A stretch of DNA of 29,432 bases, from positions 1 to 29,432 of the IMG/VR virus record IMGVR_UViG_3300042289_000372; one strand, 5' to 3'. Below the pieces are notes generated by a model. That model did not search any database. It saw only the letters and a list, made by a program, of their open reading frames with translations, and was not told where the DNA came from. The DNA is from a virus. This document shows, one piece after another, positions 12,651 through 29,241 of this stretch. How positions within the stretch are numbered: position 1 is the stretch's first letter; every line of letters begins with the position of its first letter. Position numbers and translations under genes: made by a program.

Positions 12651-13457
12651 ATGACCACACAACTGATTGACGTACCTCGGGACAACCTGTTTCGTGGTCT
12701 GACTGAAACTCCGATTGAGCTGCGTGACGGTGAGCAGTCTGACGGCACGACCATGTTTGGTCATTTCACAAAGTTTGAGGCGTGGACTGAGATCGACTCG
12801 TGGTATGAGGGCCGCTTCTTGGAGCGTTTCGTCCCTGGGTCGTTTAAGAAAACAATTAACGAGTCGCGTGACCGTGTGCGCGTCCAATACGACCACGGCT
12901 ACGACGTGTTTGTTGGGTCAGCGATCCTTGGTCCGATCGACGTCCTACGTGATGAAGAGGACGGCGTCTACTACGAAGTCCCGTTGCTGGACACGGACTA
13001 CAACCGTGACCGGATTCTGCCGATGTTGCGTGGCCAGTTGATGACTGGTGACAAGGCCGGCAGTGTCTTGGGTGCGTCGCACCGTTTCCGTGTGGTGAAA
13101 GAGGAGTGGGTTGAGCCGTCTAAGGCGACGGATTACAACCCTGAAAAGTTGCCTGAGCGGACGATCCGTGAGGCCTCACTCTACGAGTTTGGGCCGGTTG
13201 CGTTTCCGGCTCAGCGTGCCGCCACGTCTGGTGTGCGTTCTATTTCTCTGACAGATCATTTCAACGAGTTGGCGTTGGTCCGTAGTGGCCGTGCGCAACG
13301 TGCGGTTGAACGTCTGTCGTCCCTGATCCTGCCAGCCGCCTCGGGCACTGGAAGCGAACAAGAAGTCGAGCCGCTTGCAGAGCACTCGCCACGTCAAACG
13401 TCTGTTGCGTTTGCCCGTGCCCAACTTGAAATCCTAAAGACTCGAAAGGTCCACTAA
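12651..13457 (+). CDS. Prohead maturation protease (HK97, peptidase S78)
   Basis: A 268-residue serine protease of the herpesvirus-assemblin fold that removes the capsid delta domain during maturation. Family signs: the N-terminal barrel FGHFTKFEAWTEIDS, then FLERFVPGSFKKT; catalytic His 82 in VQYDHGYD; the Ser segment LGASHRFRV (Ser 143, with Ser 138 as the alternative); and the final core REASLYEFGPVAFPAQ. The C-terminal 60 residues are a charged tail probably used to enter the prohead. A strong ribosome binding site, GGAGG (12637-12641), precedes ATG 12651. Confidence 0.92.
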   Translation: MTTQLIDVPRDNLFRGLTETPIELRDGEQSDGTTMFGHFTKFEAWTEIDSWYEGRFLERFVPGSFKKTINESRDRVRVQYDHGYDVFVGSAILGPIDVLRDEEDGVYYEVPLLDTDYNRDRILPMLRGQLMTGDKAGSVLGASHRFRVVKEEWVEPSKATDYNPEKLPERTIREASLYEFGPVAFPAQRAATSGVRSISLTDHFNELALVRSGRAQRAVERLSSLILPAASGTGSEQEVEPLAEHSPRQTSVAFARAQLEILKTRKVH

Positions 13458-14905
13458 TGAAATATCTTGAACTGTTGCGCGCTAAGCGTGCAGAAATGGA
13501 AGAGCAGCGCGCTGCTCAAATCGCGGCGATGGAGTCGGTACTTGAGGCAGCTACGGCTGAATCACGTAGCGCACTTGAGCCAGAAGAAGAGGCACAAGCT
13601 ACAGAGCTTCGTTCCAGTGTTGCGACGATTGACGCTGAGCTTGCCAAGGTCGATGCGCAAATTGCCGACTTTGAGAAGATTGGTGAGCGTGCAGTTTCGG
13701 CTGCTAAGGCTCCACAAGTCATGAAGCAGGTTGCTACCGGCTTTGATGGTGACGTCCGTTACATGCGTCCGTCCGAGGCTCGTGACATTGCCCGCAAAGT
13801 CATCGACGATGCGAAGAACACTTCACATCTTCGTGATGATCAGCTTGAAAAGGTTGAGTCACTGTTGGGTCGTTCGGATGCGAACATCAACGGCGCTGAG
13901 CTTGCCAAGATGATCCTTGTTACTGAAACTGATGCCTACCGCTCGGCGTTTGCCAAGGCGACTTTGCAGACTCAGCCTGTGTTTACGTCGGATGAGGCGC
14001 AAGCGTTGATCCGTTTCAACGAGCTGCGTGCAGCGTCGTTGACGAACGCTTCGGGTGGTTTCGGTGTGCCTGTGTTGATCGACCCGACCGTGATCTTGAC
14101 GGCGCAAGGTTCGTTGAACCCATTCCGTCAAATCTCACGTGTTGAGACAATCACCACCAACATCTGGAAGGGTGTTAGCTCTGCCGGTGTGACCTGGTCG
14201 TTTGATGCTGAAGCGTCTGCGGTTTCTGATGACGCGGCAACGTTGGCGCAACCATCGGTTGACACGTACATGGCCCGCGGTTTCATTCCTTACTCGCTTG
14301 AAATTGGCGACGACTACCCCGATTTTGCGGGTCAGATGTCAATCTTGCTGACTGCTGGTTACGACGAGCTTCAAGCGTCGGCGTTTTGCACTGGTAACGG
14401 CACGACCGCTCCTCGCGGAATCTTGACGGCACTTGATGCAAACACGTTCTCTGAGGTCACACCTACTACTGACGGTGCTTTTGGCGCTGTTGATATTGCG
14501 AAGGTGTGGGGTCAGTTGCCTGACCGTTACAAGACCAACGCTACCTGGATGATGAATCATGACACGGGTAACGAAGTGTCGTCGTTCTCAACTTCGGGCC
14601 AAGGCTCCTTCTACACGGTTGACCTTTCACAAGGTAACGCACCGCAGTTGAAGGGACGTCCTGTCGCGTTCTCTAGCTACTTCCCCGATTTCACTGGTAC
14701 GACCGGCGCTAGCAACATTCTTGTTGTTGGTGACTTCCGTAACTATCTGATCGCGGATCGTGTCGGTATGACTGTTGAGCTTGTTCCACATCTTTTCGAT
14801 GTGACGAACAATCGTCCTACTGGTCAGCGTGGCTGGTTTGCACGTGCACGTGTTGGTGCTAACTCCATCAACGATTTGGGTTTCCGCGTTCTTCAGAACC
14901 AGTAA
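13457..14905 (+). CDS. Major capsid protein, HK97 fold with N-terminal delta domain
   Basis: A 482-residue capsid precursor. Residues 1-75 are a charged coiled coil (LRAKRAEMEEQRAAQ, EEEAQATELRSSVATID) that serves as the built-in scaffold; the protease just upstream would cut it off, probably in the region before residue 120. The mature part has the HK97 signs: GGFGVPVLIDPTVI, FRQISRVETITT, the E-loop strands, and near the end RNYLIADRVGMTVEL and RGWFARARVG. Its ATG overlaps the protease stop (TAATG). A strong terminator follows, which lets this gene be the most abundant late transcript end. Confidence 0.95.
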   Translation: MKYLELLRAKRAEMEEQRAAQIAAMESVLEAATAESRSALEPEEEAQATELRSSVATIDAELAKVDAQIADFEKIGERAVSAAKAPQVMKQVATGFDGDVRYMRPSEARDIARKVIDDAKNTSHLRDDQLEKVESLLGRSDANINGAELAKMILVTETDAYRSAFAKATLQTQPVFTSDEAQALIRFNELRAASLTNASGGFGVPVLIDPTVILTAQGSLNPFRQISRVETITTNIWKGVSSAGVTWSFDAEASAVSDDAATLAQPSVDTYMARGFIPYSLEIGDDYPDFAGQMSILLTAGYDELQASAFCTGNGTTAPRGILTALDANTFSEVTPTTDGAFGAVDIAKVWGQLPDRYKTNATWMMNHDTGNEVSSFSTSGQGSFYTVDLSQGNAPQLKGRPVAFSSYFPDFTGTTGASNILVVGDFRNYLIADRVGMTVELVPHLFDVTNNRPTGQRGWFARARVGANSINDLGFRVLQNQ

Positions 14906-14920
14906 CCCTTAGTTAGAACG

Positions 14921-14960
14921 CAGCTGGCGGCGTACCGCTTTCCGCCGCCAGCTGTTTCTC
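14921..14960 (+). terminator. Intrinsic terminator after the capsid gene
   Basis: CAGCTGGCGGCG (14921-14932) pairs perfectly with CGCCGCCAGCTG (14943-14954), a 12-base-pair GC-rich stem with a 10-base loop, followed by TTTCTC. It is the best terminator in the window. It ends the head operon or lowers expression of what follows. Confidence 0.85.
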
Positions 14961-14994: not shown

Positions 14995-15222
14995 ATGTCG
15001 TACAAGTTTGCTAATGCGCAGTCTGTTGTTTCTTGGAATGGTCTGCGTCTGCGTTTGAATCCGGGTGAGGTTTGGGCAGCGGATGATCCGTTTGTTCGTG
15101 CGAATCCGGGACTGTTTGCTGATGTGCCGCCGGTTGTTTGTTCGTCGGGGTCTGCGCCTGTGAGTCGGGTTGAGCAGGCGACGGCTATGCCTGGTGAGCG
15201 TCGGACGACTCGCCGTGGCTAA
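14995..15222 (+). CDS. Small protein following the capsid gene, unknown
   Basis: A 75-residue protein behind GAAAGCGAG (14981-14989). The first part looks like a small beta domain (SVVSWNGLRLRLNPGEVWAA), then DDPFVRANPGLF, and a Ser/Pro/Arg-rich tail (CSSGSAPVSRV; GERRTTRRG). Small genes after the capsid gene in actinophages are sometimes head decoration or connector-related proteins, and the N-terminal domain would suit that. It directly precedes, and overlaps by 8 bases, the glycosyltransferase gene; its Ser/Thr-rich tail could be a modification target, which is speculation. Confidence 0.6.
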   Translation: MSYKFANAQSVVSWNGLRLRLNPGEVWAADDPFVRANPGLFADVPPVVCSSGSAPVSRVEQATAMPGERRTTRRG

Positions 15223-16582
15223 CAAGGTTTGTTTGGCGTATGTGCGTGGTACGGATGTTTCCGATTCGTGGCATTCGTCTTGGTTTGATCAGATCAACTT
15301 TTTGCAGCAGGTCGACGGGATTCTTGACGGCGGCTTTATCCGTATGCGTTACGGCACCGGCGGAATTGTTGAGGCGCGTAACAAGGCTGTTGACGCGTTT
15401 ATGCAGACCGACGCTGACTGGCTGTGGTGGGTTGATACGGATATGGGCTTTGCGCCTGACACGGTTGTACGCCTTCTAGAGGTTGCTGATCCGGTTGAAC
15501 GCCCGATTGTTGGGGCTCTCTGTTTCGCGATGAAAGAGACTGGTCCTGACGGGTTTGGCGGCTATGTGACTGCGCCACGCCCAACGATCTTTGACTGGCG
15601 TGAGAATGCTCAGGGTCAGACGGGGTTTATGGGCCGGGTCGACTATATGGCGAACAGTGTTGTTCGTTGTGCGGCGACGGGTTCTGCGTGCGTTCTGATT
15701 CACCGGTCGGTGTTTGAGAAGCTTGGGCCGAATCCTTATAACCAGCTTTTTAACGAGTCGACTCAGACGATGCAGGGTGAGGACATGTCGTTTTGTGCGC
15801 GAGCACAGCAGGCAGGGTTCCCTGTCTACGTGCATACGGGTGTGCGTACGACGCATCATAAAGAGGTTTGGCTTTCGGAGTCTGACTATCTGGCCTGGTT
15901 TCAGCCGCCGCCTGCTACTGAAGGCGTAACGGTGATTGTGCCGGTGTTGAATCGTCCCGGCAACGTGCAGCCTTTGATGGAGTCATTGCAGGCGTCAACC
16001 GGGTTGGCTCAACTTTTGTTTGTTGTTGAGGAAGATGACAAAGCTGAGCGTGACGCACTTTTCCAGGCGGGCGCAGAGTATTTGCTTACGAAGCGTCGGA
16101 CGTTTGCTGAGAAAGTGAATGATGCTTGGGGGCAAGCACAAGGCGCGCCTTGGATCATGCTGGCTGGTGATGACGTACGTTTTCGTCCGGGTTGGCTGAA
16201 TCATGCGATGCACGTTGCACGTGTTTCTGGTGCTGACGTGGTTGGCACTAACGACTTGGGCAATCCGGCTGTGATCGCGGGCCGTCACGCGACGCACATG
16301 TTGTTGCGTAACGACTATGTGCGTGAGGTTGGCGGGTCGTGGGATGGTCCTGGCATTGTCTGCCATGAGGGTTACCGTCACAACTTTGTTGACAACGAGA
16401 TTGTTGAGGCTGCCCGGCAGCGTGGTGTTTGGGCACCGTCGCTTGGCGCGATCGTCGAACATCTGCACCCGGCATGGAATAAGAACACGCCGGATGATGT
16501 GTATGCGTTGGGCAACGAGTCGTATGAGTCGGACCGTGAACTGTTTGTGAGCCGTTTGGAGGCGCAACGTGTGGCTGTCTGA
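15215..16582 (+). CDS. Glycosyltransferase with two tandem GT-A domains
   Basis: A 455-residue protein from GTG 15215. Domain 1 (about 1-230): nucleotide-binding start VCLAYVRGTDVSDSW, conserved GGIVEARNKAVDAF, the metal motif WWVDTDMGF (D74-T-D76), and a GEDMSF segment (E189-D190) in the acceptor site. Domain 2 (about 237-420): a fresh family-2-like start VTVIVPVLNRPGNVQPLMESL, a GDD metal motif (318-320, IMLAGDDVRF), and EHLHP near 415-419. Both halves look complete, so it could add two sugars or be a fused relay enzyme. Virion glycosylation by phage-encoded transferases is known in mycobacteriophages. The gene sits between capsid and connector genes and overlaps the oxygenase gene by 14 bases. 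Confidence 0.85.
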   Translation: MANKVCLAYVRGTDVSDSWHSSWFDQINFLQQVDGILDGGFIRMRYGTGGIVEARNKAVDAFMQTDADWLWWVDTDMGFAPDTVVRLLEVADPVERPIVGALCFAMKETGPDGFGGYVTAPRPTIFDWRENAQGQTGFMGRVDYMANSVVRCAATGSACVLIHRSVFEKLGPNPYNQLFNESTQTMQGEDMSFCARAQQAGFPVYVHTGVRTTHHKEVWLSESDYLAWFQPPPATEGVTVIVPVLNRPGNVQPLMESLQASTGLAQLLFVVEEDDKAERDALFQAGAEYLLTKRRTFAEKVNDAWGQAQGAPWIMLAGDDVRFRPGWLNHAMHVARVSGADVVGTNDLGNPAVIAGRHATHMLLRNDYVREVGGSWDGPGIVCHEGYRHNFVDNEIVEAARQRGVWAPSLGAIVEHLHPAWNKNTPDDVYALGNESYESDRELFVSRLEAQRVAV

Positions 16583-17168
16583 CCCGTTTCCGCACGCAGT
16601 GTTTGACGGCCTGTTTGACGTCGGACTCCTTGACCGTGTGATTGAGGAGTTTCCGGCGACGGATGATCCGCGTTGGCAACGTTTCTCGAACGGTAATGAG
16701 CAGAAGCTTGCGGGTACGCCTGCGATGTTGTCGTCTGCTGCGGTCGAATATTTCGAGCAGCTTGCCGGGATGTCGGATTGGTTGTCTGATCTGACGGGGA
16801 TTCCTGAGCTGTCTATGGAGTTGATTGGTGGTGGGTATCATCTGATCCCGCCGGGTGGCAGGTTGGCGATGCACACCGACTTCAACAAGTCTCCTAAGAC
16901 TGGCCTGTTTCGTCGGTTGAACGTGTTGACGTATCTGAACTACGGCTGGACTGATGAGGGTGGCTGCCTGTATTTGGGCGCTAACCGTGAGGTGACGGTT
17001 GTGCCGGAGTATGGGCGCACCGCGATTTTCGAGACATCTGACGTGTCTTGGCATGGTCACCCGTTGCCTGCGGAACGTAACCGGTATTCGGTTGCTGCCT
17101 ATTTCTTTTCACCCGAACAGCCGGCCGGTTATCGGGCGGATCATTCGACAGTTTGGTTGGGCGAATAG
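16569..17168 (+). CDS. 2-oxoglutarate/Fe(II)-dependent oxygenase (prolyl-hydroxylase type)
   Basis: A 199-residue oxygenase. The iron ligands are H102-x-D104 (LAMHTDFNK) and a distal His at 162 (SWHGHP; H164 is the alternative); R172 (ERNRYSVAAYFF) would bind 2-oxoglutarate. Further family signs are LNVLTYLNYGW and GGCLYLG on the double-stranded beta-helix. Relatives hydroxylate Pro, Lys, Asp or small molecules. The GTG start lies inside the glycosyltransferase end and the stop overlaps the methyltransferase start, so the three enzymes are translated as one unit. It may create a hydroxyl group on a virion protein or glycan; the substrate cannot be read from sequence. Confidence 0.88.
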   Translation: MWLSDPFPHAVFDGLFDVGLLDRVIEEFPATDDPRWQRFSNGNEQKLAGTPAMLSSAAVEYFEQLAGMSDWLSDLTGIPELSMELIGGGYHLIPPGGRLAMHTDFNKSPKTGLFRRLNVLTYLNYGWTDEGGCLYLGANREVTVVPEYGRTAIFETSDVSWHGHPLPAERNRYSVAAYFFSPEQPAGYRADHSTVWLGE

Positions 17169-17662
17169 TGCATCCTGAGGCGTTTGACTTTGTCAAAGAG
17201 TGTGTGCATGAGCACGGACCGTTTACCGACGTTGTTGAGATCGGTGGCCGTGACGTTAACGGCAACGTCCGTAGCCTGTTTGGTGACGCCGCATATGTGA
17301 CAACAGATATTGCTGAAGGTCCGGGTGTTGATGTTGTGGTCAACGGCAAAGACTTTGTGCCCGCTACCGCACCGGATTGTGTTGTGTGTACTGAGGTGTT
17401 GGAGCATACGGCTGACGCTAAGGCGATTGTGGAGAACATGGCCAAGATGTTGCGGCCTGGTGGTGTCGGAATCATTACGTGTGCTGGTCCTGGCCGTCAT
17501 CCGCACAGTGCGATTGACGGCAACGCGTTGCAGCCTGGCGAGTTCTACGAAAACGTCGAGGGTGAGGACATTCTCCGTTGGGTTGATCCTTGGGTGTCGT
17601 TCACGTTGAACAGTCCGCAGGGTCGTGATACGCGGGTGATGTTTGTGAAGGGTGATGTCTAA
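17168..17662 (+). CDS. SAM-dependent methyltransferase, class I
   Basis: A 164-residue methyltransferase from GTG 17168, which overlaps the preceding TAG (TAGTG); TTG 17153 is a possible earlier start. Motif I is VVEIGGRDVNG (22-32), an acidic residue for the ribose follows at D47 (VTTDIAEG), motif IV-like TEVLEHT at 75-81, and LRPGG at 95-99. This is the Methyltransf_11 pattern, usually small-molecule or sugar O-methylation rather than DNA methylation; no DNA-methylase NPPY/DPPY motif is present. As third member of the modification cassette it may cap a sugar added by the glycosyltransferase. It ends in TAATG with the connector gene. Confidence 0.85.
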   Translation: MHPEAFDFVKECVHEHGPFTDVVEIGGRDVNGNVRSLFGDAAYVTTDIAEGPGVDVVVNGKDFVPATAPDCVVCTEVLEHTADAKAIVENMAKMLRPGGVGIITCAGPGRHPHSAIDGNALQPGEFYENVEGEDILRWVDPWVSFTLNSPQGRDTRVMFVKGDV

Positions 17663-18285
17663 TGGCTTATGCGTCGTTGACTGATTTGAAGTCGTGGTTG
17701 AAAATCGACGACTCTGAGGACGATGCGTTGTTGTCGTTGGCGTTGGCTAACGCTGAGTCTGCGATTGACCGTTATACGGAGCGGACGTTTGTGCTGTCGT
17801 CAACCCAGTCTGCGACTGCGCGCACGTATGGGACGCGTGTTGCGGGTGCTGTCTGGGTTGACGACATCGGTGACACGACGGGTCTGATTGTCAAGATTGA
17901 TGATAACGACAACGGCGTGTTTGAGACGACGTTGACGTTGGGTACGGATTTCGTGTTGGACCCGCCAACCGGCCAGTATCAGGCGGGCGGCGTGTGGCCG
18001 TCGACACGTATTCTGACGATTGGTAGCCGTCTGCTGCCTACCTTTTCGGAGTCGAATCGGCGTCGTGTCGAGGTGACTGCTAAATGGGGTTGGCCTCTCG
18101 TGCCGTCCGAGGTTCAGCTTGCAACCTTGTATCTGGCTGCTGACTTGTATCGTCGTAAGGACGCGCCGTTTGGTGTTATCGGCTGGGGTTCTGAGATGGG
18201 TGTTTCTCGGATTGGTTCTAATCCGATGAAGGCCGTCGCGGGCCTGTTGGAGCCGTACCGTAAGTCGATGGTTGTGGTCGCCTAA
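17662..18285 (+). CDS. Head-to-tail connector (HK97 gp6-like adaptor)
   Basis: A 207-residue adaptor that docks under the portal. The N-terminal helices match the gp6/phage-connector family: YASLTDLKSWLKIDDSEDDALL, then LALANAESAIDRYTERTF. A beta insert with a Ca-like DDNDNGVFE loop sits in the middle, and the C-terminal helix pair VPSEVQLATLYLAADLYRR closes the fold. It overlaps the methyltransferase and the next gene by one base each (TAATG). Confidence 0.85.
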   Translation: MAYASLTDLKSWLKIDDSEDDALLSLALANAESAIDRYTERTFVLSSTQSATARTYGTRVAGAVWVDDIGDTTGLIVKIDDNDNGVFETTLTLGTDFVLDPPTGQYQAGGVWPSTRILTIGSRLLPTFSESNRRRVEVTAKWGWPLVPSEVQLATLYLAADLYRRKDAPFGVIGWGSEMGVSRIGSNPMKAVAGLLEPYRKSMVVVA

Positions 18286-18728: not shown

Positions 18729-19463
18729 ATGGCCGCATATTCGCTGATTTCGCCAACTGCTCATGTTGGCGCTGTTGATCTGACCGCGTTTACTACGTCG
18801 ATGGATGTTTCGTTGAAAGCGAACGTTGCCGAGTCGACCACGTTCGGGTCTGCCGGATACGTCACCAAAGTCGTCGGTCTTGAAGATTCGGATTTCAGTT
18901 TTACGGTGAACCAGGATTTTGCGGCTGCTGGTGTTGGCACGTTGTTGCCGTCGTCGTCGGTGGGTTCGACGTATCCGGTGACGGTGTGTCCGTCGACTGG
19001 GTCTGCGTCTGGTGATCCTGCGGTGTTGTTGTCTGGTATTTGGACTGCCAGTACTCCGGTTGCTGGGTCGACTGGTGAACTGTCAACCGACACGCTGCCG
19101 TTTGCTGGTACTGCCCCGTTTGGTCGTGGCCAGTTGGCACACCCTTCTGCTGCACGTACCGCGACGGGTACCGGAAACGTGTTGACGATGACTGGGCCGA
19201 CTTCTGGTCAGACCTTGGTTGCGCACCTCCACGTGTTCAACGTGTCAGGCACAACACCGTCAATGACGGTAGCTGTGCAGTCTGCGACGCTGGTTGGGTT
19301 CGGTTCGCCCACTACACGCGCCACGTTTACCGCTGCGACCGGCGTTACGTCGGAACGCGTCGTTCTCGCCGGACCCGTCACAGACGGATTTTGGCGGGTC
19401 ACGTGGACAATTAGCGGCACTACGCCGTCGTTCACGTTTGCTGCCGCTATCGGCATCTACTAA
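18729..19463 (+). CDS. Major tail (tube) protein, copy 1, with C-terminal domain
   Basis: A 244-residue protein behind GGAAGGG (18715-18721). The first 130 residues resemble the next gene product: both start MAA-aromatic-x-L-x-SPT, share FTTS-[MI]-D, TTFGS-x-GY-x-T and x-NQDFA. This is the tail-tube type found in actinophages (a beta-barrel ring subunit). Residues about 135-244 form a second, beta-rich Ser/Thr domain absent from copy 2 (TGTGNVLTMTGPTSG, VAHLHVFNVSG, FWRVTWTISG), like the Ig-type or carbohydrate-binding decorations that stick out of phage tail tubes. Confidence 0.75.
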   Translation: MAAYSLISPTAHVGAVDLTAFTTSMDVSLKANVAESTTFGSAGYVTKVVGLEDSDFSFTVNQDFAAAGVGTLLPSSSVGSTYPVTVCPSTGSASGDPAVLLSGIWTASTPVAGSTGELSTDTLPFAGTAPFGRGQLAHPSAARTATGTGNVLTMTGPTSGQTLVAHLHVFNVSGTTPSMTVAVQSATLVGFGSPTTRATFTAATGVTSERVVLAGPVTDGFWRVTWTISGTTPSFTFAAAIGIY

Positions 19464-19486
19464 CCACACAATAGAAAGGCCAAACA

Positions 19487-19966
19487 ATGGCAGCCTTTAC
19501 ACTTCTTAGCCCTACGATCCTTGCCGGTGTCGCGTGGACCGGTACTGCTCCTGGCGGTACTTCGGCGCCGTCTGGCACGATCACATCTACGTCTGACCTT
19601 TCGCCGTTCACTACGTCGATCGACTTGGGCGAGGAGATCGCGACGAACGAGACAACCACATTCGGTTCCGGTGGCTACATCACACGTATCACTGGTCTGC
19701 GTTCGGCGTCGATCGGTTTGACGTTCAACCAGGATTTCGCGTCGTCACAGTTGGATTCAATCCTGTTTACGACCCTTGGTGGTGTGGGTGCGTCAATTTA
19801 CCTAGATATCAAGGCGACGTCGGCTTCACGTTCAGCGACTAACCCGTCATTCGTCTATCAGGCGATCATTACCGAGTTGATGCCGATTACGGGTGGTGTT
19901 GGTGACACTGCCGAGTTTTCGGTTAGCTGGGAGATCACCGGCCGGTTTGGACGTCTGACCAGCTAG
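19487..19966 (+). CDS. Major tail (tube) protein, copy 2
   Basis: A 159-residue paralogue of the preceding protein, with its own ribosome binding site AGAAAGG (19474-19480). It shares the tube motifs (DLSPFTTSIDLG, TTTFGSGGYITRITGL, FNQDFASSQL) and ends with a strand that looks like a complete tube domain (AEFSVSWEITGRFG). It lacks the C-terminal decoration domain and has a 20-residue insert near its start. Two adjacent tube genes suggest a tube made of two kinds of subunit, or one tube protein and one tail-end or initiator protein. Stop overlaps the next start (TAGTG). Confidence 0.75.
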   Translation: MAAFTLLSPTILAGVAWTGTAPGGTSAPSGTITSTSDLSPFTTSIDLGEEIATNETTTFGSGGYITRITGLRSASIGLTFNQDFASSQLDSILFTTLGGVGASIYLDIKATSASRSATNPSFVYQAIITELMPITGGVGDTAEFSVSWEITGRFGRLTS

Positions 19967-28758: not shown

Positions 28759-29241
28759 ATGGGCCTTCTGCTTCTTTATAGGGGAGCTGCTAGCGGTGTA
28801 GGTCAATCAGTAACGCTGACGCCGCAAACGTTGACGTTAACGCCGCAAGCTTTGTCGTTTGCGATTGGGCCTAGGTCCGTTACGTTGACCGCGCAGACGC
28901 TGACGTTGACGCCAAACTCGTTGACGTTTGCGATCGGGCCTAGGTCCGTTACGTTGACGCCGCAGATGTTGACGTTGACGCCGCAAGCTTTGACGTTTGC
29001 GATTGGGCCTAGGTCCGTTACGTTGACGCCGCAGACGTTGACGTTGACACAGCAAGCATTGTCTTTTACAGGCGGCACATATTATGTGATCGTTGGCAAA
29101 GCCGAAACTTTGACAACGATAAGCCGCGAATCTTTGTCCGTTACCGGTTCAGAGAATGTGCGCGGTGCAACAAGTGTCGAATCGTTGAACATCAACCTTG
29201 TTGACGTGCTTGTCAACAATAAAGAAAGTGTGCTGATGTGA
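28759..29241 (+). CDS. Repeat-containing beta-rich structural protein
   Basis: A 160-residue protein behind a very strong ribosome binding site (AAAGGAGG, 28745-28752). After a short hydrophobic start (MGLLLLYRGAAS), residues 17-107 consist of nearly identical 23-residue units SVTLTPQTLTLTPQALSFAI + GPR, three full and one partial. The remainder (VIVGKAETLTTISRESLSV and on) continues the same alternating pattern with weaker similarity, so the repeats may be older than they look. Alternating Thr/Leu suggests stacked beta strands in a fibre shaft. Confidence 0.7.
   Translation: MGLLLLYRGAASGVGQSVTLTPQTLTLTPQALSFAIGPRSVTLTAQTLTLTPNSLTFAIGPRSVTLTPQMLTLTPQALTFAIGPRSVTLTPQTLTLTQQALSFTGGTYYVIVGKAETLTTISRESLSVTGSENVRGATSVESLNINLVDVLVNNKESVLM
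28807..29079 (+). repeat. 69-base tandem repeat, three full units and a partial one
   Basis: Units begin at 28807, 28876, 28945 and 29014 (the last diverges towards 29079). Each full unit ends with GCGAT(T/C)GGGCCTAGG and restarts with TCCGTTACG, with the short internal repeat TTGACG found two or three times per unit. High identity at DNA level indicates recent duplication, with potential for unit-number change by slippage. Confidence 0.9.

What the first reader, a model, noticed from the sequence alone, without database searches (positions are those of the whole stretch)
15215..17662. Three-enzyme modification cassette (glycosyltransferase, 2OG-Fe(II) oxygenase, methyltransferase) embedded between capsid and connector genes
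The sequence shows three complete enzymes with intact catalytic motifs (DTD and GDD; HxD...H...R; SAM motif I), joined by 14- and 1-base overlaps, so they are expressed as one unit. Virion glycosylation by phage glycosyltransferases is established in mycobacteriophages, but a set with hydroxylase plus methyltransferase is not something I know as a defined system. Inference: the oxygenase creates or modifies an attachment site, the two-domain transferase adds one or two sugars, the methyltransferase caps them, giving a masked virion surface. Alternative: the enzymes alter a host wall glycan or a small molecule.
Basis: partly seen in the sequence, partly recalled or inferred. Interest (0 to 1): 0.78.

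Follow-up and report, generated by a model that had tools for sequence, protein, structure and literature searches.

The report
Phage glycan-decorating three-enzyme cassette
Next to its capsid gene this phage, probably of actinobacteria, carries a sugar-adding enzyme, an oxygenase and a methyltransferase, and the same trio recurs in 36 other sequence-distinct groups of phages, so it looks like a real, unnamed pathway that probably builds and trims sugars on the virus particle.

Summary
In detail: at 15215-17662 lie an intact two-domain GT2 glycosyltransferase, a PF13640 2OG-Fe(II) oxygenase (OXY) and a PF13489 methyltransferase (MT), packed with 14- and 1-base overlaps between a small head protein and the head-tail connector. 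The trio is not a one-off. Apart from the window, 36 of 64 viral OXY clusters (90% identity) have both a GT2 and a homologous MT within 3 kb; among OXYs at least 45% identical to the window's, 25 of 32. All triads but one fall in one 42-cluster OXY clade (support 100/99). It occurs in the capsid-connector slot of siphophages and an Amycolatopsis prophage and, rearranged, in the isolated Streptomyces phages Zuko and KimJongPhill, where OXY is annotated 'hypothetical'. In OXY-less relatives the slot still holds a GT2, often with epimerase, acyltransferase or methyltransferase genes; bacterial OXY homologues lie in polysaccharide clusters. Best reading: a late virion-glycan cassette in which OXY and MT tailor what the GT builds. 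Whether OXY acts on sugar or protein is open; the acceptor is unknown; nothing is experimental. Known kind (phage virion glycosylation), new and recurrent variant.

The parts
13457..14905 (+). HK97-type major capsid protein (context; possible acceptor, untested)
   Evidence: PF05065 E=1.7e-30, phrog_10 E=2e-42
14920..14955 (+). 13-bp hairpin followed by a U-rich stretch, between the capsid gene and the cassette genes; terminator-like
   Evidence: fold -30.5 kcal/mol, z -5.3, 0 of 200 shuffles as stable
14995..15222 (+). 75-aa small head / head-tail connector protein (p75); conserved C-terminal VExATAxPGExR
   Evidence: phrog_9538 E=7e-5; alignment; also in GT-less Gordonia phages Eyre and Kita
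15215..16582 (+). tandem two-domain GT2 glycosyltransferase (GT); N-domain about 15224-15898, C-domain about 15926-16564
   Evidence: Pfam, invariant catalytic residues in 26 homologues, confident model pLDDT 94.5
16569..17168 (+). 2OG-Fe(II) oxygenase (OXY), prolyl-hydroxylase-like fold
   Evidence: PF13640 E=2.5e-13; HxD...H...R invariant in 60 of 60; model pLDDT 97.6; OGFOD1 Z 19.5
17168..17662 (+). SAM-dependent methyltransferase (MT), class I
   Evidence: PF13489 E=2e-8, phrog_32762 E=6e-19
17662..18285 (+). head-tail adaptor/connector that closes the slot
   Evidence: PF05135, phrog_442 E=1e-20

Best explanation
A phage-encoded glycan cassette, translated with the late head genes. Shown: the three enzymes are intact, packed in one overlapping gene run, and recur together as a set across many phage lineages. 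Inferred: the tandem GT uses host nucleotide sugars to build a one- to two-sugar glycan on a virion protein; OXY hydroxylates that glycan (or, less likely, the acceptor residue); MT O-methylates a hydroxyl. The result is a decorated virion surface. The GT is the constant core; OXY and MT are paired tailoring enzymes that occupy the same place as epimerases, acyltransferases and other methyltransferases do in relatives.
For: Co-occurrence: 36 of 64 viral OXY clusters (window not counted) have GT2 and MT within 3 kb; 25 of 32 for OXYs at least 45% identical to the window's. A 42-cluster OXY clade (100/99) holds 36 of the 37 triads; 40 of the 42 have a GT2 within 3 kb, and L021, one of the other two, has GT and MT elsewhere in the same locus. 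Gene order differs between lineages (GT-GT-OXY-MT in the slot; OXY-GT-MT-GT in Zuko-like phages; OXY upstream of the protease in L021), so the set holds together through rearrangement. Position: GT2 in all 30 capsid loci examined; Pontimonas phage phiPsal1 has capsid-GT-MT-GT-neck. In OXY-less relatives the region also holds NDP-sugar epimerase, hexapeptide acyltransferase, cytidylyltransferase and methyltransferases. Bacterial OXY homologues lie in polysaccharide clusters with Wzx-type flippase, DegT aminotransferase, epimerase and GT genes. OXY presence goes with MT presence in capsid loci, 12/13 against 5/17, Fisher p=0.0008. Virion glycosylation by phage GTs is published for mycobacteriophages (Freeman 2023, doi 10.1016/j.chom.2023.05.028, not held here; cited in PMC11256854 and PMC13313380).
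Against: No virion mass data; no acceptor identified. In Zuko-like phages the cassette is far from structural genes, next to tRNA genes, so a place beside the capsid is not universal and the target need not be the virion. The Fisher test ignores shared ancestry and mixes loci gathered by different queries. GT2, MT and 2OG folds are generic, so substrates cannot be read from them. The capsid C-terminus has no Ser/Thr-rich tail.
Confidence: 0.6

Rival explanations
1. Hydroxylate-then-glycosylate: OXY hydroxylates a Pro or Lys side chain of a virion protein, the GT attaches sugar to the new hydroxyl, and MT caps it, as in Dictyostelium Skp1 or collagen.
For: OXY fold is closest to peptidyl prolyl hydroxylases: OGFOD1 Z 19.5, P. 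putida PHD Z 19.4, HIF-PHD2 Z 18.8, Dictyostelium PHD Z 17.9; profile hit to OGFOD1 E=3.5e-13 over the full length. The whole-GT Foldseek list is headed by collagen hydroxylysine galactosyltransferase COLGALT1, with LH3 and mimivirus R699 below.
Against: GT2 without OXY is common in capsid relatives (17 of 30 loci). The same oxygenase fold acts on sugar nucleosides (PolD, PasI). The COLGALT1 match has rmsd about 17 A and TM 0.3, so it shows two GT-A domains and no specific kinship; K4 chondroitin polymerase matches as well. No collagen-like repeats near OXY (1 of 112 loci).
Confidence: 0.22
2. The cassette changes a host wall or surface glycan, or a secreted one, for example to block superinfection, rather than the virion.
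For: GT2 enzymes commonly act on wall polymers (C-domain resembles TarP and RmlT); Zuko-like phages keep the set away from structural genes; bacterial OXY homologues are in surface polysaccharide clusters.
Against: In the window lineage the genes lie inside the late head gene run, overlapping the small head protein and the connector, and a GT2 follows the capsid in every capsid relative examined. Late expression would leave little time to remodel the wall of a cell about to lyse (inference).
Confidence: 0.13
3. DNA base hypermodification (oxidised base plus glycosyltransferase, as in TET-bearing phages).
For: Oxygenase plus GT pairs occur in such systems (own knowledge); weak GT hit to phrog_842, an HMC alpha-glucosyl family, E=0.045.
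Against: OXY has no TET/JBP match at E up to 1 and is P4H/OGFOD1-like; MT is Methyltransf_23, not a C5-cytosine enzyme; position in the head gene run.
Confidence: 0.03

Closest known systems
Phage virion glycosylation in mycobacteriophages (Che8, Rita and others; Freeman et al. 2023)
   Same: Phage-encoded glycosyltransferases; actinobacterial siphophages. A citing paper reports glycans on major capsid proteins (PMC11256854); another reads a GT plus a methyltransferase in Rhodococcus phages as a sign of glycosylated virions (PMC13313380).
   Different: No 2OG oxygenase of this family was found in any mycobacteriophage of the 50,697-record phage set; [quoted passage not shown]
Streptomyces phages Zuko and KimJongPhill, genes 109-106 / 110-107
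   Same: The same families: OXY (about 40-43% identical), GT2, MT (36-39%), GT2, overlapping genes.
   Different: Order OXY-GT-MT-GT, GT domains as separate genes, located near tRNA genes away from the head genes; OXY annotated 'hypothetical'.
Pontimonas phage phiPsal1 genes 010-012
   Same: GT, MT and GT between capsid and neck protein, the same slot.
   Different: No OXY; MT on the opposite strand; one GT is a group I enzyme.
Prolyl-hydroxylase-fold oxygenases (OGFOD1/Tpa1, P. putida PHD, HIF-PHD2; PolD and PasI)
   Same: Same fold and metal/2OG ligands.
   Different: About 15-21% identity; substrate unknown; forms its own phage subfamily tied to GT2 and MT.
Skp1 and collagen hydroxylation-glycosylation pathways
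   Same: A 2OG oxygenase paired with a glycosyltransferase; two-domain GT-A architecture in COLGALT1.
   Different: No sequence kinship shown for the GT; no collagen acceptor nearby; GT occurs without OXY in relatives.

Membership tests
Phage virion glycosylation system | phage encodes glycosyltransferase(s) | tested here: met
   two GT2 domains with invariant DxD and ED
Phage virion glycosylation system | glycans covalently attached to capsid or tail-tube protein | not testable with these tools
   needs virion mass spectrometry
Phage virion glycosylation system | modified residues near the C-terminus of capsid or tube (own recollection of Freeman 2023) | tested here: inconclusive
   capsid C-terminus not Ser/Thr-rich; tube2 residues 25-44 have 12 Ser/Thr of 20, but near the N-terminus
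Conserved GT-OXY-MT triad (Zuko-type) | all three families within 3 kb | tested here: met
   36 of 64 viral OXY clusters besides the window; isolated phages Zuko and KimJongPhill
2OG-Fe(II) oxygenase, prolyl-hydroxylase-like | HxD...H iron triad and basic 2OG residue | tested here: met
   H102, D104, H162, R172 in 60 of 60
2OG-Fe(II) oxygenase, prolyl-hydroxylase-like | double-stranded beta-helix fold of the P4H/PHD type | tested here: met
   OGFOD1 Z 19.5 over 182 residues at 2.6 A
2OG-Fe(II) oxygenase, prolyl-hydroxylase-like | hydroxylates protein-bound proline | not testable with these tools
   same fold also contains sugar-nucleoside enzymes PolD and PasI
TET/JBP DNA hypermodification | Tet_JBP domain | tested here: not met
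   no such Pfam match at E up to 1
Collagen hydroxylysine glycosylation | collagen-like Gly-X-Y acceptor | tested here: not met
   runs of six or more GXY found in 1 of 112 OXY loci, none in the window

The most novel reading that the evidence does not exclude
A hydroxylation-dependent glycosylation pathway in bacterial viruses: a prolyl-hydroxylase-fold oxygenase creates a hydroxylated residue on a virion protein, a tandem GT glycosylates it and a methyltransferase caps the sugar, the logic of Skp1 and collagen modification evolved in phages.
Probability: 0.2. Interest if true: 0.85.

Novelty: new variant of a known kind. Interest (0 to 1): 0.62.

Why it matters
Phage virion glycosylation is a recent and little-charted field. 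This work shows that a three-enzyme set, including an oxygenase not linked to it in the literature I could search, is a recurrent module across many phage lineages, and that the capsid-connector slot of one siphophage lineage is a standing place for glycan genes. Because two carriers, Zuko and KimJongPhill, are isolated phages, whether their virions carry hydroxylated and methylated sugars can be measured directly.

Tried and rejected
p75 as cassette-specific acceptor: its VExATAxPGExR tail is conserved in GT-less Gordonia phages. Collagen-like acceptors: absent near OXY. Anti-phage defence: only a generic 2OG model and a weak mads_2 match in PADLOC. DNA hypermodification: no TET/JBP domain. 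DNA similarity of the region to known phages: none by blastn. GT kinship by sequence to any solved structure: only marginal galactofuranosyltransferase hits, E about 0.01; fold lists dominated by generic GT-A enzymes. Distance correlation between OXY and capsid was weak with 12 loci (Spearman 0.34), so no claim of co-inheritance with the capsid is made. A first gene-calling pass picked wrong frames in GC-rich loci and was replaced by a codon-usage caller and profile searches. No paper in the held library combines phage, prolyl hydroxylase, glycosyltransferase and capsid; searches turned up no description of this module. Freeman 2023 itself could not be read.

Full report
Observation. The window is an IMG/VR virus record of 29,432 bases with a siphophage layout: terminase, portal, protease, HK97 capsid, connectors, tube, tape measure, endolysin and a WhiB-like regulator, which points to an actinobacterial host. 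Between a 75-aa small head protein and the head-tail adaptor lie three overlapping genes. GT (15215-16582) has two GT2 domains; OXY (16569-17168) is a PF13640 2OG-Fe(II) oxygenase; MT (17168-17662) is a class I methyltransferase. The overlaps are 8, 14, 1 and 1 bases. A strong hairpin separates the capsid gene from this run.

Intactness. Across 60 OXY homologues the iron ligands H102, D104 and H162 and the 2OG-binding R172 (roles inferred from the family) never vary; across 26 fused GTs D74, D76, E189 and D190 never vary and the second domain's GDD is kept in nearly all. AlphaFold models are confident (OXY pLDDT 97.6; GT 94.5).

What the slot holds in relatives. A search with the capsid gave 28 loci, one of them (L007) near-identical to the window. 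In 25 of the other 27 a GT homologue is found after the capsid; an MT homologue in 6; OXY in 1. Other genes there are NDP-sugar epimerases, hexapeptide acyltransferases, a cytidylyltransferase, a DHBP synthase and other methyltransferases. Gordonia phages Eyre and Kita have the same small head protein followed directly by the adaptor, the slot being empty. Pontimonas phage phiPsal1 has GT, MT and GT there.

Does the triad recur? Searching with an OXY alignment found 80 viral loci (best of 122 confirmed) and 20 bacterial loci. Profile scans of their surroundings, after clustering OXY at 90% identity and leaving out the window, give 64 viral clusters: 44 with GT2, 48 with MT and 36 with both within 3 kb; for OXYs at least 45% identical to the window's, 29, 26 and 25 of 32. 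A maximum-likelihood tree puts 36 of the 37 triads (window included) in one 42-cluster clade (100/99); the label 'triad near head genes' against 'triad elsewhere' changes several times within it. So the set was moved or reshuffled more than once and stayed together. The Amycolatopsis pretoriensis DSM 44654 genome holds a prophage with capsid-p75-GT-GT-OXY-MT (L119). In the annotated phage collection only Zuko, KimJongPhill and two marine records have the OXY; in the first two it heads an OXY-GT-MT-GT run. In 30 capsid loci with enough downstream sequence all have GT2, and MT is present in 12 of 13 OXY-positive against 5 of 17 OXY-negative loci (p=0.0008, not corrected for ancestry).

What OXY acts on. 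Fold and profile searches place it with peptidyl prolyl hydroxylases (OGFOD1 Z 19.5, P. putida PHD 19.4, HIF-PHD2 18.8; profile E=3.5e-13 to OGFOD1), but the same lists hold PolD and PasI, which work on sugar nucleosides. Bacterial homologues from Bradyrhizobium, Methylomonas, Methylophaga and Methylococcaceae lie in polysaccharide gene clusters. GTs without OXY are common in the slot. I therefore prefer sugar tailoring over making the attachment site, but only moderately.

What the GT acts on. The fold list is headed by COLGALT1 and K4 chondroitin polymerase, both tandem GT-A enzymes, with large rmsd; the C-domain resembles polypeptide GalNAc-transferases, TarP and WrtF, and the N-domain resembles the archaeal-virus protein A197. 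None of this fixes donor or acceptor.

Mechanism proposed. Late in infection the GT builds a short glycan on a virion protein from host nucleotide sugars; OXY hydroxylates and MT methylates it. Shown: the enzymes, their integrity, their linkage and their recurrence. Inferred: virion target, order of steps, chemistry, and shielding as the benefit.

Known or new. Virion glycosylation by phage GTs is published (Freeman 2023, read only through citing papers PMC11256854 and PMC13313380). PMC13313380 already suggests that a GT plus a methyltransferase in Rhodococcus phages points to glycosylated virions. The oxygenase as a steady third member, and the slot as a glycan locus, I found nowhere in the held library, which is incomplete. 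I file it as a new variant of a known kind.

Noticed in passing
14920-14955: Very stable hairpin (-30.5 kcal/mol, z -5.3) with a U-rich tail between the capsid gene and p75; may lower or process transcription into the cassette.
   Followed up: partly
15150-15222 (p75 C-terminus): Motif VExATAxPGExR is conserved at the C-terminus of this small head protein across nearly all relatives, including GT-less Gordonia phages; its role is unknown.
   Followed up: partly
28813-29061: 69-bp tandem repeat (3.6 copies) encoding a Thr/Pro-rich SVTLTPQTLTLTPQALxFAIGP repeat protein; a conceivable glycan acceptor.
   Followed up: no
18729-19966: Two tail-tube homologues in a row (30% identical); the first has a long C-terminal extension. 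The pair recurs in several OXY-bearing relatives.
   Followed up: partly
L022:6504-9549: The slot of this relative holds a GT2, DHBP synthase (riboflavin pathway), a cytidylyltransferase and a collagen-like protein.
   Followed up: no
L099, L102, L105, L106, L107, L110, L111: A separate OXY subclade in other phages is paired with an MT but with no GT2 that my profile sees; portal genes are nearby in several.
   Followed up: no
L070-L072: OXY lies between terminase and portal, away from the capsid slot; no GT2 seen before the held stretch ends.
   Followed up: no
L002 (IMGVR_UViG_3300042518_000211): A second contig nearly identical to the window across the whole head region (99-100% protein identity).
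   Followed up: yes
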